This document shows positions 15,381 to 56,337 of a stretch of DNA of 64,000 nt, in pieces; positions within the stretch are counted from its first letter, which is position 1, and each line of letters starts with the position of its first letter. Source of the stretch: Ypsolopha sequella (taxonomy: Eukaryota; Arthropoda; Insecta; Lepidoptera; Ypsolophidae); assembly GCA_934047225.1 (NCBI GenBank), contig OW203989.1, positions 9,895,977 to 9,959,976 on the forward strand, in the 5' to 3' direction. A program made the translations under genes and the position numbers. Under the pieces are notes generated by a model. It searched no databases, had not been told where the DNA came from, and saw only the letters and a list, made by a program, of their open reading frames with translations.

Positions 15381-16432
15381 TATACCGGGTGGAAAAAATG
15401 TAAGGGCCCTGGAGGGGAACTACCTTAAATCCTTTAGTTAGCTCATTTTACTGAAAGGAAACATTCCTTTATTTTTTAAAAGAAACAAAACTGCATTCAA
15501 AGATCTTCTAAAATTTGCTTGTCTCACCCGGGAACTGAACCAACTAAAAATTAAAAAAATAAACCCACGCTATTTTATTATACAAATCGGTAGGATTATT
15601 GTTCAGGATAAAATTTGTCTAATAAACATTTAGTCCTAAACTCATCTGTTGTGCGAGATACCCATGGAATTGAATATTTATTACAAGTTCTTTATTAACA
15701 ATACCTAGTACTATTATTCACTTGTCAAGAAATAATGATACGCCATTATTACACAATGACAGGACGGAATGAAAGCAAAACAAAACAAAATTTGAAATTC
15801 GAACGAATACTTTTATTGATTTTAGAAATGTTGAAAGTTATCGTTTGAACATCAAATTTGTTGCTCCGCGTTGCAAAAAGAAAATGTGTTCCTTTTTTAA
15901 ACTTTTTGTCAGTACGCCTAGTGCAAGAAGGAATTGTGGTGTGCATAGATTTATTATTACCATTTAACGATTTTTTTTTTGAAGTCTTCAACAAGGTACT
16001 TAAGATAAATAACATTAACAAGCTTGTACTTCATACGATGTCTTTGGTTGTAAGAGAGATAAAAAAATTATAACGTGTCATTTACTTGTTACAAGTGAAC
16101 AGTACTCGGTATTGTTAACAAAGAACTTGTAATAAATATTTAATTTCATGGGTATCTCGTACAACAGATGAGTGTAAGACCAAATGTTTATTAGACAAAT
16201 TTTATTCTGAACAATAATCCTACCGATTCGTATGATAAAATAGCGAGGGTTTATTTTTTTAATTTTTAGTTGGTTCAGTTCCCGGGTGAGACAAGCAAAT
16301 TTTAGAAGATCTTTGAATGCAGTTTTGTTTCTTTTAAAAAATAAAGGAATGTTTCCTTTCAGTAAAATGAGCTAACTAAAGGATTTAAGGTAGTTCCCCT
16401 CCAGGGCCCTTACATTTTTTCCATCCTGTATA
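15381..16432. mobile_element. Long-inverted-repeat element (1.05 kb, arms about 350 bp)
   Basis: The outer ends are TATACCGGGTGGAAAAAATG and its inverted partner ending ...CCATCCTGTATA. The arms (about 15381-15735 and 16085-16432) are near-perfect inverted copies, including GGGCCCTGGAGGGGAACTAC and its complement. The loop (15736-16084) has open frames on both strands but no recognised domain. TA at both edges suggests a Tc1/mariner-type target. This is a non-autonomous fold-back element. Confidence 0.8.
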
Positions 16433-18111: not shown

Positions 18112-18117
18112 ACCAGG
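18112..18117. repeat. Left target-site duplication ACCAGG of the palindromic Polinton
   Basis: ACCAGG directly precedes the arm terminus AGTAGTGTG and is repeated exactly at 31192-31197, immediately after the inverted terminus. A 6-bp duplication is what Polinton/Maverick integrases produce. Removing the element would leave ...CGTTTAACCAGGTTCTAG. Confidence 0.85.
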
Positions 18118-18463
18118 AGTAGTGTGTTTTCGCCGGTTCTGGACCACTGAGTAATTAGTTAATGAGATGTGTCAACATTTGCCAAAATAAAACTCAATTG
18201 ACTATTAACTTAATACTGGTTTATGTGCATGCATGTAATTTATTAATGGGATCATTATTTATCTGTTGATAATGAAATAATTAACACGAAAGTTTTGTTA
18301 TAGTCATTCCAAAGTTATTATTCACTTAATACTTTATGTGCATGTCATTGCTATTTGCAGTTTTTTTTTCTACAGCTGACACTTTTCTAATGTTGTCTCA
18401 TTCTAAACATGAAATTTTATAAAATGTGGATTTACCTCCCATTCCTAAAAAAATGTTAGTACC

Positions 18464-19096
18464 TACTGAATATCAAGTTTTCTTCAAATTCTCCATACAA
18501 ACGCCAAAGTTATTATTTTATTATATGTTTAAAATGAATCAATTATTGTATGGTTTGTTTTGAAGATATCTCCAGATGAATGTTACTACACGATATAAAA
18601 ATTGATTTACTTTGGTCCAGTGACTGACGTCAATCATATATGCAGAAGTAACGTCTAAAACAATGCTCAGGTCACGTTTAGGTTTACTAAATTAGTATAG
18701 ACCATTGATGTAATAAAATTGTTCTGAGGTATAGACATAGTAAAACTGATAGTAGTTAGATTTCAGGTACAATTATAAAATATTAATTCGTACTGAATAT
18801 CAAGTTTTCTTCAAATTCTCCATACAAACGCCAAAGTTATTATTTTATTATATGTTTAAAATGATTCAATTATTGTATGGTTTGTTTTGAAGATATCTCC
18901 AGATGAATGTTACTACAGGATATAAAAGTTGATTTACTTTGGTCCAGTGACTGACGTCAATCATATATGTAGAAGTAACGTCTAAAACAATGCTCAGGTC
19001 ACGTTTAGGTTTACTAAATTAGTATAGACCATTGATGTCATAAAATTGTTCTGAGGTATAGACATAGTAAAACTGATAGTAGTTAGATTTCAGGTA
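18464..19096 (+). repeat. Two 306-bp direct repeats inside the left arm
   Basis: Copy 1 is 18464-18769 and copy 2 is 18791-19096 (period 327). Both start TACTGAATATCAAGTTTTCT and end TTAGATTTCAGGTA, with only a few differences. They are mirrored at 30213-30518 and 30540-30845. They sit between the terminus and the first gene, so they could have been part of a terminal replication or promoter region. Function unknown. Confidence 0.8.
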
Positions 19097-19290
19097 AAAT
19101 GATTTTTGGAAAGATGAAAACATAATTGTTTCAGCTCATTACTTTTCTGTTGATGATGAAATGAGTAACGCGAAAGTTTTGTTATAGTAATTCCAAAGTT
19201 ATTATTCACTTAGTAATGGTTTATGTGCATGTCATTTATTATTAGGATACTTGTTTATCTATATCATTTATTAACGATGTAAATTGTCTT

Positions 19291-19324
19291 TATAAGCGAT
19301 AAAGATCTCTGACGACTTATCAGT
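19291..19324 (+). promoter_or_regulatory. Core promoter: TATA box plus insect initiator (left arm)
   Basis: TATAAG at 19291 lies 29-31 bp upstream of a TCAGT initiator at 19320-19324 (predicted +1 at A19322), the spacing expected for RNA polymerase II promoters in arthropods. The next start codon opens the unknown gene at 19349. The mirror copy is 29985-30018. Inferred from spacing and motifs only. Confidence 0.5.
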
Positions 19325-19348
19325 CTCGTTCTAGTTTTCGAACTTACT

Positions 19349-20080
19349 TTGTTATTTATAAAAGAAGACTTATTTTATTATTATTATAGTGGTGTTTTTG
19401 ATCCCTGTCAGTCTATAAAAAACGGACAAATGGAGGTAAGAATAACGAATCTTTATTTATTTTTTTACGTTTTATTCATAACCAAGTTTGATTCCTCAGG
19501 TTCTTTATTTTCTTTTCTTCATATTTTTGTGTTTTTAGTTGTTTTATATATTTTTTTTTTGTTTTGTTTTCAGAATTCAAGGGAATTGTATATCAATGAC
19601 GTGCAAGAAGATGAAGTGTTTGATCCAGTTAGACAGAACCCATATTATTATGCTCAGGACCCTTTAGCCAACTTCGAGGAGGAAATGGCGTCTAGAGCTA
19701 AGAAAAGGAAGATTAATCAAAAGCCTGATACTAATATCGATGCGTTTTTCGATAAAAAGGTGCCAATAAAGATCAAGAGAGGAATCAGTTCGAATGTTGG
19801 GAAACCTAAAGAAAATGGTATACAATACATAGCATTATCAGAAGAAGACAATGCTACGCATCTTATAAAAATTGAGTTATTTGATTTACATAAGATCCGT
19901 GATATTCCACATGAAGAACAATGGAAACATGCTGAAGTTCGAGTAAAATATGTTAGTAAAACCCCTGACGATGAAATTAAACGAATGAGTGAAAGTATTG
20001 TATACAAAATTACGAAGTTTATAGCTGATAACTCTAAATGTAAGAGCTATTTTATTGATTTTGGAAAGATGAAAAAATAA
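19349..20080 (+). CDS. Unknown Polinton-arm protein with one intron (left arm)
   Basis: The frame is open for 243 codons, but 19436-19573 looks like a 138-bp intron. It starts GTAAGA after ATGGAG, has a T-rich tract and ends TTTTCAG before AATTC. Removing it keeps frame and leaves about 197 residues. The part read through the intron is hydrophobic and repetitive, unlike the rest. The mature C-terminal part is charged, with acidic stretches (NDVQEDEVFDPV), a basic nuclear-localisation-like run RAKKRKINQK and a hydrophilic tail. I do not recognise the family. An upstream TATA/initiator pair supports expression. It could be a Polinton accessory or DNA-binding protein, but that is speculation. 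Confidence 0.55.
   Translation: MLFIKEDLFYYYYSGVFDPCQSIKNGQMEVRITNLYLFFYVLFITKFDSSGSLFSFLHIFVFLVVLYIFFLFCFQNSRELYINDVQEDEVFDPVRQNPYYYAQDPLANFEEEMASRAKKRKINQKPDTNIDAFFDKKVPIKIKRGISSNVGKPKENGIQYIALSEEDNATHLIKIELFDLHKIRDIPHEEQWKHAEVRVKYVSKTPDDEIKRMSESIVYKITKFIADNSKCKSYFIDFGKMKK
19436..19573 (+). other. Predicted intron in the unknown arm gene
   Basis: The donor is GAG|GTAAGA. The acceptor is TTTTGTTTTGTTTTCAG|AA after a long T-rich tract. The length is 138 bp, divisible by three with no stop, so both spliced and unspliced forms stay in frame. Confidence 0.6.
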
Positions 20081-20100
20081 TCGTTTCACTTCCTTACTTT

Positions 20101-20172
20101 TGTAAAATACGTTACAACTAATATTTTTATATTGCTCACATATAAGGTTTATTAAGTCAAAATAAAACAACT
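20101..20172 (+). repeat. 70-bp direct repeat, copy left of the polymerase fragment
   Basis: TGTAAAATACGTTACAACTA through AAGTCAAAATAAAACAACT is repeated at 20795-20868 with two extra bases. The polymerase piece lies exactly between the two copies. Mirrored in the right arm at about 28442-28515 and 29137-29208. Confidence 0.85.
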
Positions 20173-20798
20173 TGGATTTATCTTAGAAGTTGATCTTGAA
20201 TATCCCATTGAAAAACATGATCTACACTCTGATTTACCCTTCTGTCCTGAGCTCATAAAAACTTCAAATAATGCAGGTGAAAGATTGATCACAAGTCTTA
20301 ATCTAAAATCAAAGTACGTGATTCACTACGTTAACTTAATACAATGTCTAGAAAATGGATTAATTTTAACAAAAGTTCATCGTGTGTAGCAATTCAACCA
20401 GAAACCTTGGTTAAGAGAATATATAGACTTAAACACTAAATATCGTTCCCAGGCTACTTCTGCTTTTGATAAAGACTTCTATAAATTAATGAATAATTCT
20501 GTTTACGGTAAGACGATGGAAAATGTTGAAAAGAAGGTTAATGTCAAACTTGTAACACATTGGGAGAACAACGGTAAAAAAAATGGGTGCGTCAAGTCTG
20601 TCAAGCAGACCGGGATATCAAAACCGAACTGTGTTTTCGAAAAATTTTATTGCGGTCCAATTAAAAAAAAACAAAACATGTCTATAACAAACCAATTTAT
20701 CTCGCATTTTGTATTCTAGACTTATCCAAAACACTCATGTACCAATTTCACTACGACTACATGAAAATAAAATACGGTCAAAATGTAAAACTAATGTA
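20170..20798 (+). pseudogene. polB: DNA polymerase B (protein-primed) middle fragment, left arm
   Basis: The translated segment holds ILEVDLEYPIEKHDLHSDLP (motif A, D-L-x-Y-P), a stretch ending TKVHR, then FDKDFYKLMNNSVYGKTMEN (motif B, K-x-x-x-N-S-x-Y-G) and VKLVTHWENNGKK. These are diagnostic of the protein-primed family B polymerase of Polintons and related viruses. Breaks are a TAG stop just after the VHR block (about 20386) and a frameshift at an A-run near 20579. The frame resumes with DLSKTLMY-type sequence to about 20785 and then stops abruptly at a 70-bp repeat. The motif C region that normally follows (D-T-D-S) is absent, and so are the exonuclease and N-terminal domains. Catalytically dead. 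Confidence 0.85.
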
Positions 20799-20868
20799 AA
20801 ATACGTTACAACTAATATTTTTTTATATTACTCACATATAAGGTTTATTAAGTCAAAATAAAACAACT
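20795..20868 (+). repeat. 70-bp direct repeat, copy right of the polymerase fragment
   Basis: Second copy of the segment at 20101-20172, about 95% identical. It starts precisely where polymerase homology ends. Confidence 0.85.
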
Positions 20869-20904
20869 CATATCACATAACATAATCTTTTATTTATAAT
20901 ATCA

Positions 20905-21245
20905 TCAAAGCAATCTGTTATAATAGTAGTTTAACATAAAATCGTTTAATATGGTATTATCATGATCGAACAGATTAATAAAATAGTCTAAAGAATACCT
21001 TTCCATTTTAAAATAAATAAATAACAAAGCATATTCCCCCACATACTGAAGTTAAAATACTTTGAAGAATCTTAGTGCTATGTATCCAATTATCCATTGC
21101 TTATAATTTCTATTTAAAAATGATAAATGACTTCCTGTTGGGTTCCTTCCAAAACTGTCTAAATATTCTCCAACTTTATTTATAAAATGAATCAATTTAA
21201 TAGTTCACATGCTTTTTATTGTATAATTTTATTTATTAAGATTGT
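20905..21245 (-). pseudogene. Adenain-like cysteine protease remnant, left arm
   Basis: On the minus strand this reads GEYLDSFGRNPTGSHLSFL, then in shifted frames ILQSILTSVCG, then YALLFIYFKMERYSLDYFI and finally HDNTILNDFML to a stop at 20905-20907. The order (Y-x-D-S-F-G, then a Trp/Gln-containing block, then S-x-V-C-G-x-Y, then an aromatic tail) is that of the C5/adenain protease found in adenoviruses and Polintons, with VCG carrying the nucleophile cysteine. At least two frameshifts break it, one within a run of five G beside the VCG block. The N-terminal half, including the histidine region, is poorly preserved. Units 2 and 3 of the surrounding array repeat most of it without the C-terminal end. 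Confidence 0.65.
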
Positions 21246-22556
21246 ATATTTGACATATCTGGTTATAACTATTTATAACACAACGAATATAACATTGCAC
21301 TGTAATATACGAGTACGAATACAACAATTATTTTTTCACAAAAAAAAAAGGAAATTATAGCTTTTGAGAATGTTTTATAGACTTGTCAATTCAAGCGATA
21401 CTCTCAGGAGAGAGATATCACAAATTAAATACAATAAAAAAAATATCGTGTAATCTACCCAAACAACTCCAACCATTTTGAAAATAACTGAACATTATAA
21501 ACAGATTAATAAAATAGTCTAAAGAATACCTTTCCATTTTAAAATAAATAAATAACAAAGCATATTCCCCCACATACTGAAGTTAAAATACTTTGAAGAA
21601 TCTTAGTGCTATGTATCCAATTATCCATTGCTTATAATTTCTATTTAAAAATGATAAATGACTTCCTGTTGGTTTCCTTCAAAAACTGTCGAAATATTCT
21701 CCAACTTTATTTATAAAATGAATCAATTTAATAGTTCACATGCTTTTTATTGTATAATTTTATTTATTAAGATTGTATATTTGACATATCTGGTTATAAC
21801 TATTTATAACACAACGAATATAACATTGCACTGATATATACGAGTACGAATACAACAATTATTTTTTCACAACAAAAAAAGAAATTATAGCTTTTGAGAA
21901 TGTTTTATAGACTTGTCAATTCAAGCGATACTCTCAGGAGAGAGATATCACAAATTAGATACAATAAAAAAAAAATCGTGTAATCTACCCAAACAACTCC
22001 AAGCATTTTGAAAATAACTGAACATTATAAACAGATTAATAAAATAGTCTAAAGAATACCTTTCCATTTTAAAATAAATAAATAACAAAGCATATTCCCC
22101 CACATACTGAAGTTAAAATACTTTGAAGAATCTTAGTGCTATGTATCCAATTATCCATTGCTTATAATTTCTATTTAAAAATGATAAATGACTTCCTGTT
22201 GGTTTCCTTCAAAAACTGTCGAAATATTCTCCAACTTTATTTATAAAATGAATCAATTTAATAGTTCACATGCTTTTTATTGTATAATTTTATTTATTAA
22301 GATTGTATATTTGACATATCTGGTTATAACTATTTATAACACAACGAATATAACATTGCACTGTAATATACGAGTACGAATACAACAATTATTTTTTCAC
22401 AACAAAAAAAGAAATTATAGCTTTTGAGAATGTTTTATAGACTTGTCAATTCAAGCGATACTCTCAGGAGAGAGATATCACAAATTAAATACAATAAAAA
22501 AAATATCGTGTAATCTACCCAAACAACTCCAAGCATTTTAAAAATAACTGAACATA
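20971..22556 (+). repeat. Three-unit tandem array, period about 530 bp, left arm
   Basis: The units start with CAGATTAATAAAATAGTCTA at 20971, 21502 and 22032, and each ends near AAAATAACTGAACAT. They are about 98% identical. The array begins inside the C-terminal part of the protease remnant, so each unit carries a truncated protease piece plus about 300 bp of upstream sequence. Each unit also contains a 79-codon plus-strand frame in some copies, which I regard as chance. Confidence 0.9.
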
Positions 22557-22689
22557 ACACATGAAAAAAGTTATAATTCAAAAAAATATTAAACATATAA
22601 ATAAATCACTTAACTATACACGAGAACTTCACTAAATAATACATTTTTATTCATGATATATAATTATGTTACTTAAGCATCATTATAAA

Positions 22690-23522
22690 TTTATCCTAAA
22701 GTGCCCCCATAAAGTGTCCGTAGAATTCGATATCAAATACCTTTTAGAATCATCAGATGACAATGTATTTTTTTTTATCTTGCAAATAACAAATTTGGTA
22801 TCACTTAAGCAAATAAAAAGGTTCCCGGTTTATTTAAAGATGAACATGAAGGTGAAATTTTATTGGAGTTTGTAGGATTGCAATCGAAATTGTACTGCAT
22901 AAAAACTGAAAGTCAAGAAATAAAAAAAGCAAAAGGTACAAAAAAGTGTATCACGAAAAACCTAGAGTTTTCATATTATGATAACGTCTTATCACGTGGC
23001 AAGGAACTCAGAAAGACAAACGTACATTTCAAGTCAATAAAACATCAGTTATTTACACAGGAGCTTAACAAGGTGGTATTATCACGCAGGGACAACAAAA
23101 CATTTATTTTAAAAGATAATATATCAACACTATCTTGGGGCCATCATTTACTATTTTGGGCAGTACTTTTCAAAATGGATGCAGGGTTTTTGAGAGATGT
23201 GATGGTATCAAAACATACATACATTCACAGAAATGGTACTAAAATTACAACAGGACTATATGCTGAATCAGATTTTAAAATTTTTGTTAAAGTAAAGAAG
23301 AACACAGATGTATTATTTCTATCATTTGTTGAATGGCAGATGATATCCGATGATTTGTATAAATATTATGTTGGTGAAATTTATAATCTTAAGTCGTTTA
23401 CATACTTATTTTGTGAAAAACGATGTTCTTTAACTTTTATAAATTTTATTTTCATAGCCCTATATGAATATCTACTATTATGTATAACAAAAAAGAGTTC
23501 AGAAACTCCAAAACGATTATGA
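22690..23522 (+). pseudogene. polB: DNA polymerase B C-terminus fused to an unknown domain, left arm
   Basis: From about 22700 the sequence shows polymerase-type residues with one TAA stop (about 22803), then NKKVPGLFKDEHEGEILLEF. This is continuous with the clean frame at 22863, which contains FVGLQSKLYCIK, KKAKGTKKCITK, KSIKHQLFTQELNKVVLSR and DNISTLSWGHH, the conserved end of Polinton-type polymerases. The polymerase should end at about residue 95 of the 219-residue frame (near 23150). The frame nevertheless continues with about 120 residues that I do not recognise (MVSKHTYIHRNGTKI, LSFVEWQMISDDLYKYY). After a probable frameshift in an A-run near 23493, a coherent frame continues to a TAA near 23693. 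The extra part may be a second protein whose start was lost. Confidence 0.75.
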
Positions 23523-24149
23523 AGTTGTTTTAAACTTTATAAATAAAATAACAAAATATTTGAAAACAAATTGTATCTCAAATAACAATATATTAAAAAG
23601 TATACTAGCATTTAATGTAGACTCAAACTCTATTGTAGAATTAGAACTTATAACTAACTGTTTAGATTACTTTTACATTTTTACTATTACATAAGTGAAA
23701 AATAATTTTTGATACCTATTAATAGACTGATTATTATAAAATTGTTATATTTTTTATTTATTTCTCCTGCATCTAACATTTTTTTTGTCTTCGATGTACT
23801 ATTAGCTGCAGGTGTGAACTTGATCAGCACATATCATGTTTTCATTTATGCTAAACGATAACAATCTTGATGTTCTCACATAGTCAGCATTTTTGATATT
23901 AAACAAGTCTCAGCCTGTGTGAAACCTACACCACACAGTTTTGCAATGGAAGTTGATTTTTTGTTTCGAGGCCAGCAAACATATACAAGAAAGTGGTGAA
24001 AATATTAACTAAAGTGTACTTAAGTGCAAAGTGTAAAGTGTAAGTAAGAGTTATGAATAAATAAAACATTTGATTGATAAAAATTATATCTTTTTATTTA
24101 TTATATGAACTAATTAATTCTAAACCTGATAAAACAATTATATAAAAAT

Positions 24150-24652
24150 CTACTTGAAAATAGAAAATTTATCAATATGGTTGTCATAATACCATTTCTT
24201 AATACAACATACATTTCGAAGAGCACATTCATTTTCATGAAAAATACAATTCATTTTTTTGTTAGTGTTTACATAGTTTTTAAACAATTTAAAAAAACTT
24301 GGACATCCCTTATCACCCATATTTATAACAGTACAGCTGTTACAGATTTTATTTAACCATTTAATTTTTTCTAAACCTTTAACAATAACGATTTTATTTT
24401 TAAAATAGGCACTATTACTATTTTAAAATCCTTATAATCCATATATCCTTGTGACCAAATGATACCCCTGTTTCTTTCTATCCAGGCAACTTGCTTCTTT
24501 TCTCCTTTTGTTAAACATTGGAAAGGAAACGGAGGTTTTATCAAAAATACTTGGTTTCGGTCATTAGTTATCAATGCGAACTCCTTTAAAATAAACTCAT
24601 TTTGATAATCTTTAAATCCTTGAATATCAACAAAAATGCAATCAGTGCTCAT
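24150..24652 (-). pseudogene. Cysteine-rich conserved unknown protein spanning the left arm/loop border
   Basis: The minus-strand start at 24652 overlaps the stop of the upstream capsid-like frame by four bases (ATGA). The protein begins MSTDCIFVDIQGFKDYQNEF, contains PPFPFQCLTKGEKKQVAWIE and NRGIIWSQGYMDY, and after a single-base frameshift near 24385-24395 continues with KGLEKIKWLNKICNSC, GDKGCPSFFKLF and ECALRNVCCIKKW to a stop at 24150-24152. I have the impression of a family found in many arthropod genomes as uncharacterised proteins, possibly with an RNase H-like N-terminus (V-D-I-Q-G-F where an exonuclease would have D-x-E). Neither point is established. Its 3' part is duplicated in the right arm at 24994-25160. 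Confidence 0.5.
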
Positions 24653-24993
24653 GATATATTTTTAATGATGTTGCTTAGTGGTTTGTGTTCAAATATACAG
24701 TCGTTCAGTATAAGACAAAAGGCAGCTGTTTGGTTTGGTAATTCACGATCACTCTCTATCTCAACACGTACATCAACCGATCCTGACTTCAGATACTCAT
24801 TTTGACGAGAGCAATCAATAACAAACAGCGGAGCTATATCCTTAAATTCTTCCAACCTTAACAACGGTTCAGGTCAACGACCATAGTACGACTGTTGGAA
24901 TTTAACAAATTGATCATATAATTAGCTGTTGTGCACTATTCAAAACGCTGTCTCCATCTTCGTACACAACGTGTTGAAAATTTAGAAGTTTTC
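24317..24993. other. Unique loop between the two arms (677 bp)
   Basis: This is the only single-copy part of the element. It carries the N-terminal part of the cysteine-rich gene and the C-terminal part of a capsid-like frame, both on the minus strand. Sequence identity between the arms stops at 24316/24994 within a coding region, not at a gene boundary. Confidence 0.85.
24649..24993 (-). pseudogene. C-terminal end of a probable Polinton capsid-type protein, truncated
   Basis: On the minus strand from 24993, the frame (with a TGA and probably one frameshift) shows QSYYGR, then EEFKDIAPLFVIDCSRQNEY, SGSVDVRVEIE and TAAFCLILNDCIFEHKPL, ending at a stop at 24649. The pattern I-D-C-S-x-Q-N ... 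S-G-x-V-D-V-R ... T-x-A-x-C-L-I looks like the C-terminal end of the major capsid protein of arthropod Polinton-like elements. This is recognition from memory and not certain. The protein is cut off exactly at the right arm boundary (24993/24994), so everything N-terminal was lost when the palindrome formed. Confidence 0.45.
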
Positions 24994-25160
24994 GTGATAA
25001 GGGATGTCCAAGTTTTTTTAAATTGTTTAAAAACTATGTAAACACTAACAAAAAAATGAATTGTATTTTTCATGAAAATGAATGTGCTCTTCGAAATGTA
25101 TGTTGTATTAAGAAATGGTATTATGACAACCATATTGATAAATTTTCTATTTTCAAGTAG
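24994..25160 (+). pseudogene. Duplicated 3' part of the cysteine-rich unknown gene, right arm
   Basis: This is the mirror image of 24150-24316. It starts in mid-gene at the GDKGCPSFFKLF block and ends at the same stop (25158-25160). It has no start and no 5' half, which shows that the inverted duplication broke within this gene. Confidence 0.8.
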
Positions 25161-25787
25161 ATTTTTATATAATTGTTTTATCAGGTTTAGAATTAATTAG
25201 TTCATATAATAAATAAAAAGATATAATTTTTATCAATCAAATGTTTTATTTATTCATAACTCTTACTTACACTTTACACTTTGCACTTAAGTACACTTTA
25301 GTTAATATTTTCACCACTTTCTTGTATATGTTTGCTGGCCTCGAAACAAAAAATCAACTTACATTGCAAAACTGTGTGGTGTAGGTTTCACACAGGCTGA
25401 GACTTGTTTAATATCAAAAATGCTGACTATGTGAGAACATCAAGATTGTTATCGTTTAGCATAAATGAAAACATGATATGTGCTGATCAAGTTCACACCT
25501 GCAGCTAATAGTACATCGAAGACAAAAAAAATGTTAGATGCAGGAGAAATAAATAAAAAATATAACAATTTTATAATAATCAGTCTATTAATAGGTATCA
25601 AAAATTATTTTTCACTTATGTAATAGTAAAAATGTAAAAGTAATCTAAACAGTTAGTTATAAGTTCTAATTCTACAATAGAGTTTGAGTCTACATTAAAT
25701 GCTAGTATACTTTTTAATATATTGTTATTTGAGATACAATTTGTTTTCAAATATTTTGTTATTTTATTTATAAAGTTTAAAACAACT

Positions 25788-26620
25788 TCATAATCGTTTT
25801 GGAGTTTCTGAACTCTTTTTTGTTATACATAATAGTAGATATTCATATAGGGCTATGAAAATAAAATTTATAAAAGTTAAAGAACATCGTTTTTCACAAA
25901 ATAAGTATGTAAACGACTTAAGATTATAAATTTCACCAACATAATATTTATACAAATCATCGGATATCATCTGCCATTCAACAAATGATAGAAATAATAC
26001 ATCTGTGTTCTTCTTTACTTTAACAAAAATTTTAAAATCTGATTCAGCATATAGTCCTGTTGTAATTTTAGTACCATTTCTGTGAATGTATGTATGTTTT
26101 GATACCATCACATCTCTCAAAAACCCTGCATCCATTTTGAAAAGTACTGCCCAAAATAGTAAATGATGGCCCCAAGATAGTGTTGATATATTATCTTTTA
26201 AAATAAATGTTTTGTTGTCCCTGCGTGATAATACCACCTTGTTAAGCTCCTGTGTAAATAACTGATGTTTTATTGACTTGAAATGTACGTTTGTCTTTCT
26301 GAGTTCCTTGCCACGTGATAAGACGTTATCATAATATGAAAACTCTAGGTTTTTCGTGATACACTTTTTTGTACCTTTTGCTTTTTTTATTTCTTGACTT
26401 TCAGTTTTTATGCAGTACAATTTCGATTGCAATCCTACAAACTCCAATAAAATTTCACCTTCATGTTCATCTTTAAATAAACCGGGAACCTTTTTATTTG
26501 CTTAAGTGATACCAAATTTGTTATTTGCAAGATAAAAAAAAATACATTGTCATCTGATGATTCTAAAAGGTATTTGATATCGAATTCTACGGACACTTTA
26601 TGGGGGCACTTTAGGATAAA
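25788..26620 (-). pseudogene. polB: DNA polymerase B C-terminus plus unknown domain, right arm
   Basis: This is an identical mirror copy of 22690-23522, with the same polymerase end blocks (FVGLQSKLYC, LNKVVLSR, LSWGHH), the same in-frame TAA and the same unrecognised extension. The open frame is 25788-26447. Confidence 0.75.
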
Positions 26621-26753
26621 TTTATAATGATGCTTAAGTAACATAATTATATATCATGAATAAAAATGTATTATTTAGTGAAGTTCTCGTGTATAGTTAA
26701 GTGATTTATTTATATGTTTAATATTTTTTTGAATTATAACTTTTTTCATGTGT

Positions 26754-28339
26754 TATGTTCAGTTATTTTTAAAATGCTTGGAGTTGTTTGGGTAGATTAC
26801 ACGATATTTTTTTTATTGTATTTAATTTGTGATATCTCTCTCCTGAGAGTATCGCTTGAATTGACAAGTCTATAAAACATTCTCAAAAGCTATAATTTCT
26901 TTTTTTGTTGTGAAAAAATAATTGTTGTATTCGTACTCGTATATTACAGTGCAATGTTATATTCGTTGTGTTATAAATAGTTATAACCAGATATGTCAAA
27001 TATACAATCTTAATAAATAAAATTATACAATAAAAAGCATGTGAACTATTAAATTGATTCATTTTATAAATAAAGTTGGAGAATATTTCGACAGTTTTTG
27101 AAGGAAACCAACAGGAAGTCATTTATCATTTTTAAATAGAAATTATAAGCAATGGATAATTGGATACATAGCACTAAGATTCTTCAAAGTATTTTAACTT
27201 CAGTATGTGGGGGAATATGCTTTGTTATTTATTTATTTTAAAATGGAAAGGTATTCTTTAGACTATTTTATTAATCTGTTTATAATGTTCAGTTATTTTC
27301 AAAATGCTTGGAGTTGTTTGGGTAGATTACACGATTTTTTTTTTATTGTATCTAATTTGTGATATCTCTCTCCTGAGAGTATCGCTTGAATTGACAAGTC
27401 TATAAAACATTCTCAAAAGCTATAATTTCTTTTTTTGTTGTGAAAAAATAATTGTTGTATTCGTACTCGTATATTACAGTGCAATGTTATATTCGTTGTG
27501 TTATAAATAGTTATAACCAGATATGTCAAATATACAATCTTAATAAATAAAATTATACAATAAAAAGCATGTGAACTATTAAATTGATTCATTTTATAAA
27601 TAAAGTTGGAGAATATTTCGACAGTTTTTGAAGGAAACCAACAGGAAGTCATTTATCATTTTTAAATAGAAATTATAAGCAATGGATAATTGGATACATA
27701 GCACTAAGATTCTTCAAAGTATTTTAACTTCAGTATGTGGGGGAATATGCTTTGTTATTTATTTATTTTAAAATGGAAAGGTATTCTTTAGACTATTTTA
27801 TTAATCTGTTTATAATGTTCAGTTATTTTCAAAATGGTTGGAGTTGTTTGGGTAGATTACACGATATTTTTTTTATTGTATTTAATTTGTGATATCTCTC
27901 TCCTGAGAGTATCGCTTGAATTGACAAGTCTATAAAACATTCTCAAAAGCTATAATTTCCTTTTTTTTTTGTGAAAAAATAATTGTTGTATTCGTACTCG
28001 TATATTACAGTGCAATGTTATATTCGTTGTGTTATAAATAGTTATAACCAGATATGTCAAATATACAATCTTAATAAATAAAATTATACAATAAAAAGCA
28101 TGTGAACTATTAAATTGATTCATTTTATAAATAAAGTTGGAGAATATTTAGACAGTTTTGGAAGGAACCCAACAGGAAGTCATTTATCATTTTTAAATAG
28201 AAATTATAAGCAATGGATAATTGGATACATAGCACTAAGATTCTTCAAAGTATTTTAACTTCAGTATGTGGGGGAATATGCTTTGTTATTTATTTATTTT
28301 AAAATGGAAAGGTATTCTTTAGACTATTTTATTAATCTG
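26754..28339 (-). repeat. Three-unit 530-bp tandem array, right arm
   Basis: Mirror copy of 20971-22556, with unit boundaries near 27278/27279 and 27808/27809. Confidence 0.9.
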
Positions 28340-28405
28340 TTCGATCATGATAATACCATATTAAACGATTTTATGTTAAACTACTATTATAACAGATTGC
28401 TTTGA
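28065..28405 (+). pseudogene. Adenain-like cysteine protease remnant, right arm
   Basis: Mirror copy of the remnant at 20905-21245, with the stop at 28403-28405. It has the same frameshifts around the V-C-G block. Confidence 0.65.
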
Positions 28406-28511
28406 TGATATTATAAATAAAAGATTATGTTATGTGATATGAGTTGTTTTATTTTGACTTAATAAACCTTATATGTGAGTAATATAAAAAAATATTAGTT
28501 GTAACGTATTT

Positions 28512-29139
28512 TACATTAGTTTTACATTTTGACCGTATTTTATTTTCATGTAGTCGTAGTGAAATTGGTACATGAGTGTTTTGGATAAGTCTAGAATACA
28601 AAATGCGAGATAAATTGGTTTGTTATAGACATGTTTTGTTTTTTTTTAATTGGACCGCAATAAAATTTTTCGAAAACACAGTTCGGTTTTGATATCCCGG
28701 TCTGCTTGACAGACTTGACGCACCCATTTTTTTACCGTTGTTCTCCCAATGTGTTACAAGTTTGACATTAACCTTCTTTTCAACATTTTCCATCGTCTTA
28801 CCGTAAACAGAATTATTCATTAATTTATAGAAGTCTTTATCAAAAGCAGAAGTAGCCTGGGAACGATATTTAGTGTTTAAGTCTATATATTCTCTTAACC
28901 AAGGTTTCTGGTTGAATTGCTACACACGATGAACTTTTGTTAAAATTAATCCATGTTCTAGACATTGTATTAAGTTAACGTAGTGAATCACGTACTTTGA
29001 TTTTAGATTAAGACTTGTGATCAATCTTTCACCTGCATTATTTGAAGTTTTTATGAGCTCAGGACAGAAGGGTAAATCAGAGTGTAGATCATGTTTTTCA
29101 ATGGGATATTCAAGATCAACTTCTAAGATAAATCCAAGT
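28512..29139 (-). pseudogene. polB: DNA polymerase B middle fragment, right arm
   Basis: Mirror copy of 20170-20798, with one base fewer in the A-run after the HWENNGKK block. Because of that, this copy reads on in the family-like frame (GYQNRTVFSKNFIAVQLKK) where the left copy shifts. It still has the TAG after the VHR block, and the motif C region is missing here too. Confidence 0.85.
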
Positions 29140-29228
29140 TGTTTTATTTTGACTTAATAAACCTTATATGTGAGCAATATAAAAATATTAGTTGTAACGT
29201 ATTTTACAAAAGTAAGGAAGTGAAACGA

Positions 29229-29960
29229 TTATTTTTTCATCTTTCCAAAATCAATAAAATAGCTCTTACATTTAGAGTTATCAGCTATAAACTTCGTAAT
29301 TTTGTATACAATACTTTCACTCATTCGTTTAATTTCATCGTCAGGGGTTTTACTAACATATTTTACTCGAACTTCAGCATGTTTCCATTGTTCTTCATGT
29401 GGAATATCACGGATCTTATGTAAATCAAATAACTCAATTTTTATAAGATGCGTAGCATTGTCTTCTTCTGATAATGCTATGTATTGTATACCATTTTCTT
29501 TAGGTTTCCCAACATTCGAACTGATTCCTCTCTTGATCTTTATTGGCACCTTTTTATCGAAAAACGCATCGATATTAGTATCAGGCTTTTGATTAATCTT
29601 CCTTTTCTTAGCTCTAGACGCCATTTCCTCCTCGAAGTTGGCTAAAGGGTCCTGAGCATAATAATATGGGTTCTGTCTAACTGGATCAAACACTTCATCT
29701 TCTTGCACGTCATTGATATACAATTCCCTTGAATTCTGAAAACAAAACAAAAAAAAAATATATAAAACAACTAAAAACACAAAAATATGAAGAAAAGAAA
29801 ATAAAGAACCTGAGGAATCAAACTTGGTTATGAATAAAACGTAAAAAAATAAATAAAGATTCGTTATTCTTACCTCCATTTGTCCGTTTTTTATAGACTG
29901 ACAGGGATCAAAAACACCACTATAATAATAATAAAATAAGTCTTCTTTTATAAATAACAA
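29229..29960 (-). CDS. Unknown Polinton-arm protein with one intron (right arm)
   Basis: Identical mirror copy of the gene at 19349-20080. The predicted intron is at 29736-29873 and the promoter at 29985-30018. The NLS-like run RAKKRKINQK and the splice signals are preserved in both arms. Confidence 0.55.
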   Translation of the reverse strand: MLFIKEDLFYYYYSGVFDPCQSIKNGQMEVRITNLYLFFYVLFITKFDSSGSLFSFLHIFVFLVVLYIFFLFCFQNSRELYINDVQEDEVFDPVRQNPYYYAQDPLANFEEEMASRAKKRKINQKPDTNIDAFFDKKVPIKIKRGISSNVGKPKENGIQYIALSEEDNATHLIKIELFDLHKIRDIPHEEQWKHAEVRVKYVSKTPDDEIKRMSESIVYKITKFIADNSKCKSYFIDFGKMKK

Positions 29961-29984
29961 AGTAAGTTCGAAAACTAGAACGAG

Positions 29985-30018
29985 ACTGATAAGTCGTCAG
30001 AGATCTTTATCGCTTATA
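29985..30018 (-). promoter_or_regulatory. Core promoter: TATA box plus initiator (right arm)
   Basis: Mirror copy of the TATAAG/TCAGT pair at 19291-19324, driving the minus-strand gene copy. Confidence 0.5.
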
Positions 30019-30212
30019 AAGACAATTTACATCGTTAATAAATGATATAGATAAACAAGTATCCTAATAATAAATGACATGCACATAAACCATTACTAAG
30101 TGAATAATAACTTTGGAATTACTATAACAAAACTTTCGCGTTACTCATTTCATCATCAACAGAAAAGTAATGAGCTGAAACAATTATGTTTTCATCTTTC
30201 CAAAAATCATTT

Positions 30213-30845
30213 TACCTGAAATCTAACTACTATCAGTTTTACTATGTCTATACCTCAGAACAATTTTATGACATCAATGGTCTATACTAATTTAGTAAAC
30301 CTAAACGTGACCTGAGCATTGTTTTAGACGTTACTTCTACATATATGATTGACGTCAGTCACTGGACCAAAGTAAATCAACTTTTATATCCTGTAGTAAC
30401 ATTCATCTGGAGATATCTTCAAAACAAACCATACAATAATTGAATCATTTTAAACATATAATAAAATAATAACTTTGACGTTTGTATGGAGAATTTGAAG
30501 AAAACTTGATATTCAGTACGAATTAATATTTTATAATTGTACCTGAAATCTAACTACTATCAGTTTTACTATGTCTATACCTCAGAACAATTTTATTACA
30601 TCAATGGTCTATACTAATTTAGTAAACCTAAACGTGACCTGAGCATTGTTTTAGACGTTACTTCTGCATATATGATTGACGTCAGTCACTGGACCAAAGT
30701 AAATCAATTTTTATATCGTGTAGTAACATTCATCTGGAGATATCTTCAAAACAAACCATACAATAATTGATTCATTTTAAACATATAATAAAATAATAAC
30801 TTTGGCGTTTGTATGGAGAATTTGAAGAAAACTTGATATTCAGTA
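30213..30845 (-). repeat. Two 306-bp direct repeats, right arm
   Basis: Mirror copies of 18464-19096, with units at 30213-30518 and 30540-30845. Confidence 0.8.
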
Positions 30846-31191
30846 GGTACTAACATTTTTTTAGGAATGGGAGGTAAATCCACATTTTATAAAATTTCAT
30901 GTTTAGAATGAGACAACATTAGAAAAGTGTCAGCTGTAGAAAAAAAAACTGCAAATAGCAATGACATGCACATAAAGTATTAAGTGAATAATAACTTTGG
31001 AATGACTATAACAAAACTTTCGTGTTAATTATTTCATTATCAACAGATAAATAATGATCCCATTAATAAATTACATGCATGCACATAAACCAGTATTAAG
31101 TTAATAGTCAATTGAGTTTTATTTTGGCAAATGTTGACACATCTCATTAACTAATTACTCAGTGGTCCAGAACCGGCGAAAACACACTACT

Positions 31192-31197
31192 ACCAGG
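31192..31197. repeat. Right target-site duplication ACCAGG
   Basis: Exact copy of 18112-18117, directly abutting the right terminus (...CACACTACT|ACCAGG). Confidence 0.85.
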
Positions 31198-45082: not shown

Positions 45083-48000
45083 TCAAATAACTTCGATGGT
45101 ATTCTTGATAAAATTATAAATGGGGTAAAAAGTTTCTGTATTCTTGAGAAGTTCCTGAATAGAGCGCGGGACATCCAGGGCTTCTTTATAAATATTCAAT
45201 AAATTATCAATTAATACTAGTCTTTGTATATTAAATTGAGGGCAATCAAAAAATATGTGGTTCAAAGTTTGAATTTCAAAATTACAATATGTACAATTTG
45301 GGAAAGGTATCATTTTCAATCTGTGTAAATGTTCATTAAATCTGCCATGTCCAATTCTTAGACGACATATTGTTGTATAAAAGTTTCTATGTTTATATTT
45401 TCCGGTGATGAACCATGGTTTCTTGATATCCGAGTTAATGTTACTATACCATTTTCCTTTTATTCGTGTTGTTTCTTCCCAATGGAGCATCCATTGAAGT
45501 TTAATATTCATCTTAATGTCAGTTTTGCAATCTGAAGCTGGCAACTTAATATTTTTGATAGATATTTGATGAATATTAGGATTTTTAGCTATAGAGCTGG
45601 CAAGTTTATCAGCAAGTTCGTTACCAGGAACGTCAATATGAGATGGAGTCCAAATGAAACGTATTTCTCTGTCTTGATTGAGCCAAAGCCTGCTACATTT
45701 TTGCCTTATGTTGTAAATAATATAGTTTGTGCTACCACTGTATGTAGGATTTGATAGCGCCATTAAAACGCTCATGCTGTCCGAAATTATCAACCATTTC
45801 TTGAAACTGAGGTTAGTTAATTCTATATATTCTAAAGCTGCATAAATGGCCTGGGCTTCTGCTGTATATATACTTGCATTTGATGGTAATCTGAAGCCAT
45901 GTCCCAATTTAGTGACAGGATCATAGTAAGCCATGGAGACATTTTTGTTACATACTGAGCCATCTGTATAAATTTGTCTAAAGTTTCTGTATTCATCCAG
46001 TTTATTAAAAACTGCATATTTATCAGTCAGTGTCCTATCTATATCAATCATCAAGCCATAGAATTTGCTCTCGTACGATCCTTCATAACAGGGCAAAGTG
46101 CTACTGTTGTAAATATTATATTTACTCTTATAAGTCAAAATTTCTTGAATGTTCTGAGTTAAAAAGTTATTAGAGTTGAGCCTTAACAGCTTGGAAAGAA
46201 GGAGATTGCCATCTTCAGATAACAACTTAATAATGAAATTAAACTTTAAATTAGTGAATCTGATCATTAATGGACACAAGTTACACTCAATTTGCATTGA
46301 ATTAATGGGAGATGATTTAAAGGCTCCCAATATTAATCTTAAATTAAAATTTTGGATCTTTTCAAGCTTATCTACTAATTTTAGATCTATACAGTAACAG
46401 AAAAAACCATATTCGAAGTGACTTCTTACAAGGGATTTGTATAAAGTTAAAAGAATCTTTGGATCGGCACCCCACTGGCTACCAACCAAAGATCTTAAAA
46501 TGTTGGTAGCTTTTAAAGCTCGTTCTGTTATGCACTCAACATATTTACACCATGAGAGATTATGTGTAAAAATTACGCCCAAAAATTTTGCTTGTGGCTG
46601 AATTGGTAGTAAGTTATTGTCATATTGTAGCTCAACTGCTGATACTTTTTTCTTTGAGAATATGACTACTTTACTTTTAGCTGGACTAATTTCTAGATTT
46701 AAATATTGAAAATAACTATGTAATTTTTTCAGTGCTAAATTTAATTTTTGGGTTGTTTGTGTTATGTTATTACTACTGCAATAAATAGCCAAATCGTCAG
46801 CAAACTGTAAATTGCTGACTTCTGTTCCTAACATTTCATTGAGCCTGTGGATGTAGAGAATATACAGTAAAGGGCTCAAAATTCCTCCTTGACAGACACC
46901 TTTTGTTGACAATCTGGGTACAAAAATGTTATTGGAATTCATTTTTACATAAACTTCTCTTTCACTGATAAACTCATAAATCCACCTTACAGATTTTTCA
47001 GGTATTCCCAAAGAAGAAAGAGTTGTACATAAAATGGAATGATTAATGTTATTGAATGCACCTACAATATCAAAAAAGATACATACAAGATGTTCATTAC
47101 TGTTAACCGCAGTGTCAATATCGTGGAGGAGATGTCCTATGCTTTCTCTTGCTGATCGACCACGACGAAACCCAAACTGATTTCTTGGAAGAATATGATT
47201 AGATTCGATATAAAACTCAAGACGTTGTTTTATAAGTTGCTCAAAAAGTTTACCTGCACAGGATGTTAAAGCAATTGGACGGTAAGAGTCTGCATCATTT
47301 GGATCTTTTTCTGCTTTTAGAATGGGAACCAAGCAGTCTTGCTTCCATTCTTTTGGTATTATTAATTGTTCCCAAAGTAGATTTAAAATTTTTAAAAATT
47401 TTACTAGGCAATCTGTATTCAGTTTTTGAAACATTTTATAAGAAATACAATCTAGACCAAAGGTTGTGTCTTTACGTGACTTGATAGCTGCTTTTAACTC
47501 ATCTATGGTGAATGAATTGATAATGTAACTATTGGTGGGGTTTACAGAAGAATTAGTATTTAATTCTAATGGTTGTGAAACAAAGTCAGGTGTATATTTC
47601 CTTAAGAAGTTATTTATCCAAAATATTTCATTATTATTATTTAGTTTAGTACTTTTACTGTAGGATTTATTAAATTTACGCATAGTTTGCCAGATTTTAG
47701 AAATAGGAGTGGATCTATTTATTTCTGTACAATATTTCTTCCAACTATTTATTCTTTCTAATTTAATAATCATCTTTTTCTCAGCCTGCATTTTTTTAAA
47801 ATTAATATAGTTTAATTCACAAGGATCATGTTTAAATGTTATAAAAGCTTCTTTACTTTTTTGGACTGCATTGGCACACTTTTCATTCCACCATGGAAGA
47901 GGAGAATATCGGTATTTGGAATTGCTTCCTGCTTGTTTCGAACTATTATTGTTAATATTTAGATTTTGGACCTGTTTTCTAAATGTTGATTGTTCAATAG

Positions 48001-48844
48001 CTTTATGAATGATATTACAATAGTCATAATAAGACTGTAGAGGATCATTATAGTTAATAACAAATTCTTTGAGCATAGTGTTAGCAAGCTTTGAAAAATT
48101 ATCCCAATTCACTAGCCGTAGGTTAGGTCTTTTGAGTTCAGTTGTGTTATTTTGAGAAATAAAGCTGTTTATAGGAGAATCAGTGATAGTATTGAATAAT
48201 ATCTCAGTTATTGTGGGTAAATGATAACTTCCCAGGGGGTCATCATGGACTATCCAATTGCAATTAAGGGCTATAGAGGGACTGACTATTGTTAAATCTA
48301 AACCATTTGGTCTCCAGTTATTTGTACCTACAGTTGTTGATTGTGTGTCATTTAACAACACTAAATTGCATTCATTTACAGCGTCAAGGACATCTCTTCC
48401 ACGAGGACTGACAGATTGACAACCCCACATGATGTGATGTGCATTTAGATCACCTGCTACTAAACATGGTTTTGGTAAGGTATTAATAAAATTAACAAAT
48501 TTAGTTTTTCTAAAGTTAGGGCTACATTTTGTTGGAATATAAAGGCTGGCCATTGATAGTGTACTGTTATTATATATTATTTTGATAGCAATATTCTGAA
48601 GTGAGTCATCAAAAAATGTTTTTAATCTACTATACTGTATGTTGTTACGAATGACTATGGCAACACCATTATGTTTATTGCCACAATCATTGCGTTCTAT
48701 AGAGTATCCTTTAATATTTAATCGTTGTGTAGGCTTGAGCCATGTTTCGCAAACTAAAGCAATGTCAATATTATTTTCATACAAAAATTGAGTAAAAATA
48801 TGTCGACTACATAACAAACTTTGAGCATTCCACTGTATTATCTT
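45083..48844 (-). CDS. LINE ORF2: endonuclease, reverse transcriptase, RNase H, zinc-finger-like tail
   Basis: The frame is about 1250 codons long. Counting from 48817: the APE endonuclease has ALVCETWL (residues 20-27), AGDLNAHH (121-128), NGLDLTIVS (171-179) and SYHLP (197-201, tyrosine where most relatives have Asp). The RT has SYRPIALTS, GFRRGRSARE, CQGGILSPLLY and FADDLAIY (about residue 672, the catalytic Asp pair). RNase H has IYTDGS (about 950), AEAQAI, ISDSMS and WTPSHIDVPGNELAD. The tail has C-x2-C-x8-H-x4-C (about 1175). The conserved endonuclease start IIQWNAQS lies upstream of 48817, so the protein must begin nearer 48844. No ATG precedes it, and ORF1 ends at 48844-48846 in another frame, so ORF2 is probably made by coupled reinitiation or frameshifting. 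Confidence 0.93.
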   Translation of the reverse strand, partial: KIIQWNAQSLLCSRHIFTQFLYENNIDIALVCETWLKPTQRLNIKGYSIERNDCGNKHNGVAIVIRNNIQYSRLKTFFDDSLQNIAIKIIYNNSTLSMASLYIPTKCSPNFRKTKFVNFINTLPKPCLVAGDLNAHHIMWGCQSVSPRGRDVLDAVNECNLVLLNDTQSTTVGTNNWRPNGLDLTIVSPSIALNCNWIVHDDPLGSYHLPTITEILFNTITDSPINSFISQNNTTELKRPNLRLVNWDNFSKLANTMLKEFVINYNDPLQSYYDYCNIIHKAIEQSTFRKQVQNLNINNNSSKQAGSNSKYRYSPLPWWNEKCANAVQKSKEAFITFKHDPCELNYINFKKMQAEKKMIIKLERINSWKKYCTEINRSTPISKIWQTMRKFNKSYSKSTKLNNNNEIFWINNFLRKYTPDFVSQPLELNTNSSVNPTNSYIINSFTIDELKAAIKSRKDTTFGLDCISYKMFQKLNTDCLVKFLKILNLLWEQLIIPKEWKQDCLVPILKAEKDPNDADSYRPIALTSCAGKLFEQLIKQRLEFYIESNHILPRNQFGFRRGRSARESIGHLLHDIDTAVNSNEHLVCIFFDIVGAFNNINHSILCTTLSSLGIPEKSVRWIYEFISEREVYVKMNSNNIFVPRLSTKGVCQGGILSPLLYILYIHRLNEMLGTEVSNLQFADDLAIYCSSNNITQTTQKLNLALKKLHSYFQYLNLEISPAKSKVVIFSKKKVSAVELQYDNNLLPIQPQAKFLGVIFTHNLSWCKYVECITERALKATNILRSLVGSQWGADPKILLTLYKSLVRSHFEYGFFCYCIDLKLVDKLEKIQNFNLRLILGAFKSSPINSMQIECNLCPLMIRFTNLKFNFIIKLLSEDGNLLLSKLLRLNSNNFLTQNIQEILTYKSKYNIYNSSTLPCYEGSYESKFYGLMIDIDRTLTDKYAVFNKLDEYRNFRQIYTDGSVCNKNVSMAYYDPVTKLGHGFRLPSNASIYTAEAQAIYAALEYIELTNLSFKKWLIISDSMSVLMALSNPTYSGSTNYIIYNIRQKCSRLWLNQDREIRFIWTPSHIDVPGNELADKLASSIAKNPNIHQISIKNIKLPASDCKTDIKMNIKLQWMLHWEETTRIKGKWYSNINSDIKKPWFITGKYKHRNFYTTICRLRIGHGRFNEHLHRLKMIPFPNCTYCNFEIQTLNHIFFDCPQFNIQRLVLIDNLLNIYKEALDVPRSIQELLKNTETFYPIYNFIKNTIEVI

Positions 48845-49962: not shown

Positions 49963-50121
49963 GACTTTTTCTGCTTAATAAAGACTCTAATAAAGTTATT
50001 ATTTGTTTTTACTTCCAAAACCCTGAATAATACAGGAGTAATTGATAAAATAAATAAGTTTTTCGAAATTCCCGCCTGGTTACATCGATGGTTTCCCGCG
50101 CTTTTTTTCTTTTTTTTTTTG

Positions 50122-56186: not shown

Positions 56187-56337
56187 GCTTTTAAGCGACT
56201 GGTACGAACTAACGTTAACACTTGGCAACAGACAAACGTTAGGTATTTTCGGTATTTAGTTCCACCACGTGGGTTAATTATTTGCTTTGGATTTTGCCCT
56301 GTCTGTGTTTTTACGGGCTCAAAGGGATGCATATACA

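What the first reader, a model, noticed from the sequence alone, without database searches (positions are those of the whole stretch)
18112..31197. A 13-kb Polinton-type element that is 95% palindrome, with a perfect 6-bp target duplication
Seen: arms 18118-24316 and 24994-31191 are inverted copies, the ends are AGTAGTGTG, and ACCAGG flanks both sides. Known: Polintons/Mavericks make 6-bp duplications, start with AG and encode protein-primed DNA polymerase and an adenain-like protease, both of which are present here in decayed form. Inferred: this is a snap-back (hairpin) genome, of the sort known as defective forms of linear protein-primed or hairpin DNA viruses, that was captured by integration. 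If right, it would be direct genomic evidence that a Polinton replicated as a linear virus-like molecule and that its integrase accepts a hairpin-derived substrate. The duplication argues against the palindrome being only an assembly error.
Basis: partly seen in the sequence, partly recalled or inferred. Interest (0 to 1): 0.93.

Follow-up and report, generated by a model that had tools for sequence, protein, structure and literature searches.

The report
Mirror-image Polinton-derived element family
A virus-like mobile element in this genome exists as a family of near-perfect mirror-image copies that jump as palindromes and keep their two halves alike, which points to folded-back replication of a kind known from some viruses and linear plasmids.

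Summary
The palindrome is real: arms 18118-24316 and 24994-31191 (99.9% identical), 677-bp centre, ends AGTAGTGTG..., perfect 6-bp duplication ACCAGG. It is not a lone captured hairpin. The same assembly holds the 20-bp end 68 times, in 32 opposed pairs and 4 singles. The 11 copies examined in sequence are inverted repeats (C14b uneven); 10 of 10 testable ones have perfect, different 6-bp duplications. Markers lie on both strands in 25 of 32 pairs; 4 pairs are not palindromic by markers.

Arms differ by 0.06% within a copy and 1.4% on average between copies. Among seven copies with one shared centre junction, 88 variable sites have equal arms throughout, 20 do not. Later changes, such as one-arm insertions of 0.6 and 5.2 kb, stay in one arm.

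Frames show a broken polymerase and a capsid fragment; no protease or integrase matched. A 16.6-kb element with the same ends and an open 1,403-aa polymerase frame, not palindromic by markers, is a helper candidate. Best reading: a Polinton-derived snap-back satellite family; no published counterpart appeared in ten library searches.

The parts
18112..18117 (.). left copy of target-site duplication ACCAGG
   Evidence: compared with the right flank
18118..24316 (+). left arm of the palindrome (Polinton end inward)
24317..24993 (.). single-copy centre (677 bp); centre with both junctions found in 11 places of the assembly, the window included
   Evidence: 40 of 207 candidates scored; one of the 11 (C8:29786596) probably belongs to a duplicated segment
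24994..31191 (-). right arm, inverted copy of the left arm
   Evidence: 5 mismatches and one 1-bp gap
31192..31197 (.). right copy of target-site duplication ACCAGG
18118..18137 (+). terminal 20-mer AGTAGTGTGTTTTCGCCGGT, present 68 times in the assembly (36 forward, 32 reverse)
   Evidence: reversed-pattern control 0
31172..31191 (-). same terminal 20-mer, inverted
18450..19103 (+). 327-bp tandem repeat, two units (mirror at 30206-30859)
20969..22555 (+). about 530-bp tandem repeat, three units (mirror at 26755-28341); arms of C17a and of C11 differ here by 1,581 bp
20390..20719 (+). piece of a type B DNA polymerase (mirror about 28591-28919, computed from the arm alignment)
   Evidence: PF03175 E 3.4e-6; the corresponding piece of copy C25 E 1.1e-10
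22809..23522 (+). frame read by eye as polymerase C-terminus (mirror 25788-26501); no Pfam match
   Evidence: the assignment is recalled, not tested
24371..24661 (-). first part of a conserved protein of about 170 aa, spanning centre and left arm; broken here, an open frame in copies C2 and C12
24150..24422 (-). second part of the same protein
24649..24873 (-). C-terminal piece of a double-jelly-roll capsid protein
   Evidence: PF21738 E 2e-17, profile 257-315 of 316
24314..24316 (+). CAC, the inverted 3-bp partner of GTG at 24994-24996, where the strand appears to have folded back
   Evidence: from comparison with copy C2, which reads through this point

Best explanation
The locus is one copy of a non-autonomous foldback family made from one end of a Polinton. 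Shown: the copies examined are inverted repeats with Polinton-type ends and 6-bp duplications at different sites; several centre structures exist; the arms of a copy evolve together. Inferred: during linear, protein-primed replication of a Polinton genome a nascent strand folded back inside the capsid and 170-aa gene region, at or near a short inverted microhomology, and copied itself back to the same end. The product carries the same terminus at both ends, so the polymerase and integrase of helper Polintons can replicate and insert it in trans. In the single-stranded or displaced form the two arms pair as a long hairpin. Re-extension of a 3' end, or mismatch repair in the hairpin, then makes the arms equal again in many cycles, before insertion.
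For: The window and the 10 further copies fetched are inverted repeats. 10 of 10 copies with both flanks in hand have perfect and different 6-bp duplications. Markers lie on both strands in 25 of 32 end pairs; in 18 of the 24 pairs with the polymerase marker on both strands its distances from the two ends agree within about 10 bp. 18 of 22 arms have their own mate as strictly nearest relative; within-copy differences total 17 of 27,316, between-copy mean 1.40%. Seven copies with one shared junction: 88 concordant variable sites against 20 discordant, 15 of these private to one arm. Insertions in one arm stay in one arm. A 16.6-kb element has the same ends, an end marker 404 bp from both ends, the polymerase marker on one strand only and an open 1,403-aa polymerase frame. 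In the same assembly 55 polymerase matches (91 of 240 candidates scored) have no stops and 124 of 126 scored capsid matches (of 278 candidates) have none, so helpers are plausible.
Against: No extrachromosomal form was observed. C17a and C11 share unequal arms in mirror orientation, so at least one transposition copied an uneven palindrome without equalising it; in 6 of the 24 pairs with the polymerase marker on both strands its distances from the two ends differ, and C14b is uneven. Different centres may be central deletions of one old palindrome and not separate fold-backs: C24 has the same inner-arm score as the J3 copies. The 3-bp microhomology is short enough to be chance. 62 of the 88 concordant sites are private to one copy (C13) and may come from few recombination events. 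Relatives of the centre that coincide with full-length capsid matches are only 69% identical, so the true parent may not be in this assembly. Integrase was not located in an element with these ends (one search scored 150 of 3549 candidates, and none of those listed lies in one of the 32 end pairs).
Confidence: 0.7

Rival explanations
1. Chromosomal origin: a resident Polinton end was inverted and duplicated on the chromosome by fold-back repair, and the resulting long-repeat element was then moved as an ordinary transposon.
For: Fold-back repair makes inverted duplications in yeast (start of the abstract of PMC10622511 in the listing); the junction sequence would be the same. C17a and C11 show plain copying of an uneven palindrome.
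Against: It does not by itself explain arms that stay equal while copies diverge, nor, without later central deletions, several centre structures.
Confidence: 0.15
2. Arms are kept equal by gene conversion between the arms after insertion, as in sex-chromosome palindromes (comparison recalled).
For: Arms are nearly identical in the copies examined; a few discordant sites show states shared with other copies (5 of 20).
Against: Private single-arm changes persist: 15 of 20 discordant sites are singletons, C8 alone has 10 discordant sites; one-arm insertions of 610 bp (C8) and 5.2 kb (C14b) are not copied across.
Confidence: 0.1
3. Gradual lengthening of terminal repeats, as in Foldback or Galileo transposons, without snap-back replication.
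For: Tandem repeats inside the arms (327 and about 530 bp), which Foldback elements also have (recalled); Galileo has unusually long repeats for its superfamily (abstract of PMC3688188 in the listing).
Against: Arms reach deep into genes and end at sharp junctions shared among copies; vertebrate Maverick repeats are 46-1,447 bp (passage of PMC8097293); no graded series was seen among the 32 end pairs, though only markers were used.
Confidence: 0.04
4. Assembly or sequencing artefact.
For: Palindromic reads are a known artefact (recalled).
Against: Each of 10 copies has two different flanks with a perfect 6-bp duplication; single-arm changes and insertions show two separate arms; the pattern recurs in 25 of 32 end pairs.
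Confidence: 0.01

Closest known systems
Polintons/Mavericks
   Same: 6-bp target duplications; AGTAGT ends, the (AGT)2 motif reported for vertebrate Mavericks (passages); type B polymerase and double-jelly-roll capsid remnants
   Different: 6.2-kb inverted arms against 46-1,447 bp terminal repeats in the intact vertebrate Mavericks; no integrase or protease matched in the frames scanned; genes broken
Snap-back defective genomes of AAV
   Same: Subgenomes in a snap-back configuration that keep one end (abstract of PMC8235507); helper dependence is recalled
   Different: Here integrated many times with target duplications and kept as a family in a genome; Polinton-type ends
Hairpin and palindromic derivatives of the yeast linear plasmid pGKL1 (recalled; not among the 10 of 71 papers listed)
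   Same: Palindromic deletion derivatives of a protein-primed linear replicon
   Different: Cytoplasmic and not integrated (recalled)
Foldback transposons (Galileo, Tetris)
   Same: Very long inverted repeats with a short centre
   Different: Galileo belongs to the P-element superfamily (abstract in the listing), not to Polintons

Membership tests
Polinton/Maverick | 6-bp target-site duplication | tested here: met
   10 of 10 copies with both flanks in hand
Polinton/Maverick | AG/AGT end motif | tested here: met
   AGTAGT; motif in PMC8097293 passages; 68 exact 20-bp ends
[quoted passage not shown]
   broken pieces only: PF03175 E 3.4e-6 in the window, E 1.1e-10 in copy C25; protein priming itself is inferred
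Polinton/Maverick | double-jelly-roll capsid gene | tested here: met
   C-terminal fragment only, PF21738 E 2e-17
Polinton/Maverick | retrovirus-like integrase | tested here: not met
   no rve match in 9 of 18 frames of 60 aa or more from the left arm and centre nor in 8 frames of other copies; hence filed as Polinton-derived, not as a complete Polinton
Polinton/Maverick | adenain-like protease | tested here: not met
   no match in the same frames
Polinton/Maverick | terminal repeats of hundreds of bases | tested here: not met
   arms of 6.2 kb against 46-1,447 bp
Snap-back defective genome | one end duplicated in inverted form around a unique loop | tested here: met
Snap-back defective genome | free linear or hairpin molecule, replicated with a helper | not testable with these tools
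   only an assembly is held
Foldback transposon (Galileo, FB) | long inverted repeats and short centre | tested here: met
Foldback transposon (Galileo, FB) | P-element-type transposase in the family | not tested
   no transposase match in the scanned frames; relatives not searched

The most novel reading that the evidence does not exclude
A defective-genome lineage of a Polinton lives on as a mobile family whose normal cycle includes a hairpin: in most cycles one arm is copied from the other, so the element carries in effect one half genome written twice, parasitises intact Polintons of the same animal for polymerase, integrase and perhaps capsid, and, being an inverted repeat, may yield double-stranded RNA against its helper.
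Probability: 0.4. Interest if true: 0.88.

Novelty: new variant of a known kind. Interest (0 to 1): 0.74.

Why it matters
How Polintons replicate, and whether they form free linear virus-like genomes in animals, is an open question. A family of integrated snap-back derivatives, with arms that are made equal before insertion, would be a genomic trace of linear replication in a natural host. It also indicates that the insertion machinery accepts palindromic molecules, and it makes helper dependence testable in one living species. Inverted repeats of this size in a genome with intact viral copies are also natural candidates for small-RNA silencing (inference).

Tried and rejected
Rejected: assembly artefact (different flanks, duplications, one-arm changes); a one-off capture (many copies); arm equality by later gene conversion as the main cause (private changes persist); a decayed protease (no match). 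The 170-aa protein was considered as the protease: it aligns with 20 relatives (24 candidates) with invariant D, Q, G, K, E, W, C and H residues, has no Pfam family, and I could not match it to adenain by eye.

Led nowhere: IMG/VR scan with the capsid fragment (no relative confirmed); integrase family in the own assembly (150 of 3549 candidates scored; the family also rings in 6 of 14 control genomes); Rfam at gathering score (none). Literature: 10 searches; I saw listings and starts of abstracts only, several lists being capped (20 of 44, 0, 9 of 9, 20 of 246, 10 of 71, 12 of 26, 12 of 19, 15 of 111, 8 of 16, 6 of 6). No listed paper is, by title and start of abstract, about a palindromic or snap-back Polinton; a mention inside these or in unlisted or unheld papers is not excluded. 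Kapitonov and Jurka 2006 is not held. Passages of PMC8097293 (no 'palindrom' or 'hairpin' in its main text) and PMC10120064, and the abstract and outline of PMC8235507, were read.

Rows left out of counts: one search used the 7 J1 copies whose sequence I held (of 11 J1 places); columns with a gap in any arm were dropped; segment A for C14a_R and segment D for C14a_R and C14b_R were left out (displaced by an insertion or cut short; the displaced C14a pair showed 18 of 320); segment C held 19 of 22 arms and segment D 21 of 22. The chains stop early at tandem repeats in some copies, and several alignments ran through the centre; each figure names its call. C14b could be read only in its two outer 10-kb parts of 20.8 kb.
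Full report
Observation. The window's self-comparison confirms an inverted repeat of 6.2 kb on each side of a 677-bp centre, bounded by a perfect 6-bp repeat. The arms have 5 mismatches and one 1-bp gap.

Family. The window lies in an assembly of 866.8 Mb in 151 contigs, G000. The size and the many contigs of 20-34 Mb would fit a moth, but I did not test the species. The terminal 333 bp matches 53 places (40 of 127 candidates scored), many of them as opposed pairs. The terminal 20-mer with up to one mismatch is found 36 times forward and 32 times reverse, all exact, none in the reversed control; this makes 32 opposed pairs 7.6-25.9 kb apart and 4 single ends.

Ten further copies were fetched in two pieces each. 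All ten are inverted repeats; C14b is uneven, with a 5.2-kb insertion in one arm, a doubled stretch in the other, and its middle not held. Nine have a perfect 6-bp duplication, all different from each other and from ACCAGG: GGTAGG, AACAGG, TCCAGG, AAGCGG, AATGCA, TGCAGG, GAGGTG, AACGTC, TTTAAC. The tenth, C14a, has its right terminus displaced by about 3.7 kb (inferred from positions), so its duplication was not tested.

For the other copies, a polymerase 28-mer and a 40-mer 6.1 kb inside the arm were mapped with up to 3 mismatches; reversed controls gave none. 25 of 32 pairs carry one of them on both strands; of the 24 with the polymerase marker on both strands, 18 have it at equal distances from the two ends within about 10 bp and 6 do not. 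C14:11722711-11743547 (C14b) is one-sided by markers but an inverted repeat by sequence. C38 and C67 have the same one-sided centre type, and the 20 flanking bases printed for one end of each are the same, so they are probably two records of one locus. Four pairs are not palindromic by markers: C4:25745065-25752652, C6:16596029-16612596, C10:26482067-26507978, C11:10663557-10689103. C8:29778342 shares its 20 flanking bases with C8:29154675 and is probably not an independent insertion.

Centres. The window's centre with both junctions is found in 11 places, the window included (J1). Other structures are 7 places with a 430-bp gap and a shorter return (J3), 4 with return on both strands around a gap of about 190 bp (J4), and 1 at C24 (J5) (40 of 207 candidates scored). 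C2, C25, C14a and C14b share a further junction (J2), with parts of the loop missing in C25 and C14a. At J1, copy C2 reads on past the switch point; comparison shows a 3-bp inverted microhomology, CAC/GTG. These structures may be separate fold-backs, or one fold-back followed by central deletions; the inner arms of C24 score the same as those of the J3 copies. I cannot separate the two from the data held.

Arms evolve together. Over four segments (about 2.85 kb where complete), 18 of 22 arms have their own mate as strictly nearest relative; the four exceptions are the arms of C17a and C11. Within-copy differences sum to 17 in 27,316 compared bases; the between-copy mean is 1.40%, the maximum 2.54%. 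In the seven J1 copies in hand, 88 variable sites have equal arms in all seven and 20 do not; 15 of the 20 are singletons. 62 of the 88 are private to C13. If J1 copies descend from one palindrome, as their shared junction suggests, nearly all later changes should sit in one arm unless something equalises them. Private one-arm changes, a 610-bp insertion in one arm of C8 and a 5.2-kb insertion in one arm of C14b remain unequal, so equalising seems to take place mainly before insertion. C17a and C11 share two unequal sites and a 1,581-bp repeat-number difference in mirror orientation, so equalising is not obligatory. From the window's 5 arm differences, and a recalled butterfly rate of 2.9e-9 per site and generation, the insertion would be of the order of 140,000 generations old; this is rough.

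Genes. The arm holds a polymerase in pieces and about 530-bp tandem repeats; the centre holds the end of a capsid gene and part of a conserved 170-aa protein that is an open frame in C2 and C12. Three frames of 255, 109 and 237 aa recur with the same lengths in the J1 copy C12, so the polymerase was probably already broken before J1 copies spread; in C25 one of these pieces runs on for 213 aa, so the damage is not the same in all copies. With no integrase seen, the family should depend on helpers (inference).

Helpers. The same assembly has 126 scored capsid matches (of 278 candidates), 124 without stops, and 55 polymerase matches without stops (91 of 240 candidates scored), 51 of them in frames of 1,176 aa; neither family rings in the 14 control genomes. 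In examples such as C1:2581722 and C1:2585644 polymerase and capsid face each other as they do here. The best polymerase match, in an open frame of 1,403 aa, lies inside the end pair C6:16596029-16612596. This element has the end marker 404 bp from both ends, the polymerase marker twice but on one strand only, and no inner marker. By markers it is a non-palindromic element with the same ends and terminal repeats of at least about 440 bp that do not reach 2.6 kb; the doubled polymerase marker suggests that it is itself a composite. Its sequence was not read.

Comparison. Intact vertebrate Mavericks have 6-bp duplications, AGT-type end motifs and terminal repeats of 46-1,447 bp (PMC8097293, passages). 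Ends and duplication match; arm length and gene content do not. Snap-back genomes are known in AAV (PMC8235507, abstract); hairpin derivatives of a yeast linear plasmid are recalled. No report of a palindromic Polinton was among the papers listed in ten searches (see Tried and rejected).

Verdict. The snap-back reading is the best available, at about 0.7, for a transposing family and not for a single captured molecule. Free molecules, integrase in trans and the exact parent remain unshown.

Noticed in passing
window 45083-49974 (-): Two long open frames, 376 and 1264 aa, that read by eye as an intact non-LTR retrotransposon; not tested with a family search.
   Followed up: no
G000, e.g. C1:2581722-2586582: Dozens of capsid and polymerase matches with identical scores and open frames: apparently a very recent burst of intact Polinton-like elements in this assembly.
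   Followed up: partly
G000:C11:10663557-10689103: End pair 25.5 kb apart whose two ends belong to different subtypes by the spacing of the end marker (404 against 534 and 861): a hybrid or two elements.
   Followed up: partly
G000:C6:16596029-16612596: Element with the same ends and the polymerase marker twice in direct orientation, one inside an open 1,403-aa frame.
   Followed up: partly
G000:C25:6643055-6646726: Single end with the polymerase marker on both strands only 1.5 kb apart: perhaps a further, shorter centre structure.
   Followed up: no
window 24150-24661 (-); L045 6280-6789 (-): Conserved protein of about 155-192 aa without a Pfam family, 20 relatives in public contigs, invariant DxQGF, KE, WxxG, KGxxK and CxxHxxxC residues.
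   Followed up: partly
window 15381-15750 and 16066-16432: Inverted repeats of about 370 bp, 93% identical, 315 bp apart; possibly a small foldback element.
   Followed up: no
window 55838-56188: A 351-bp stretch that matches its own reverse complement at 85%.
   Followed up: no
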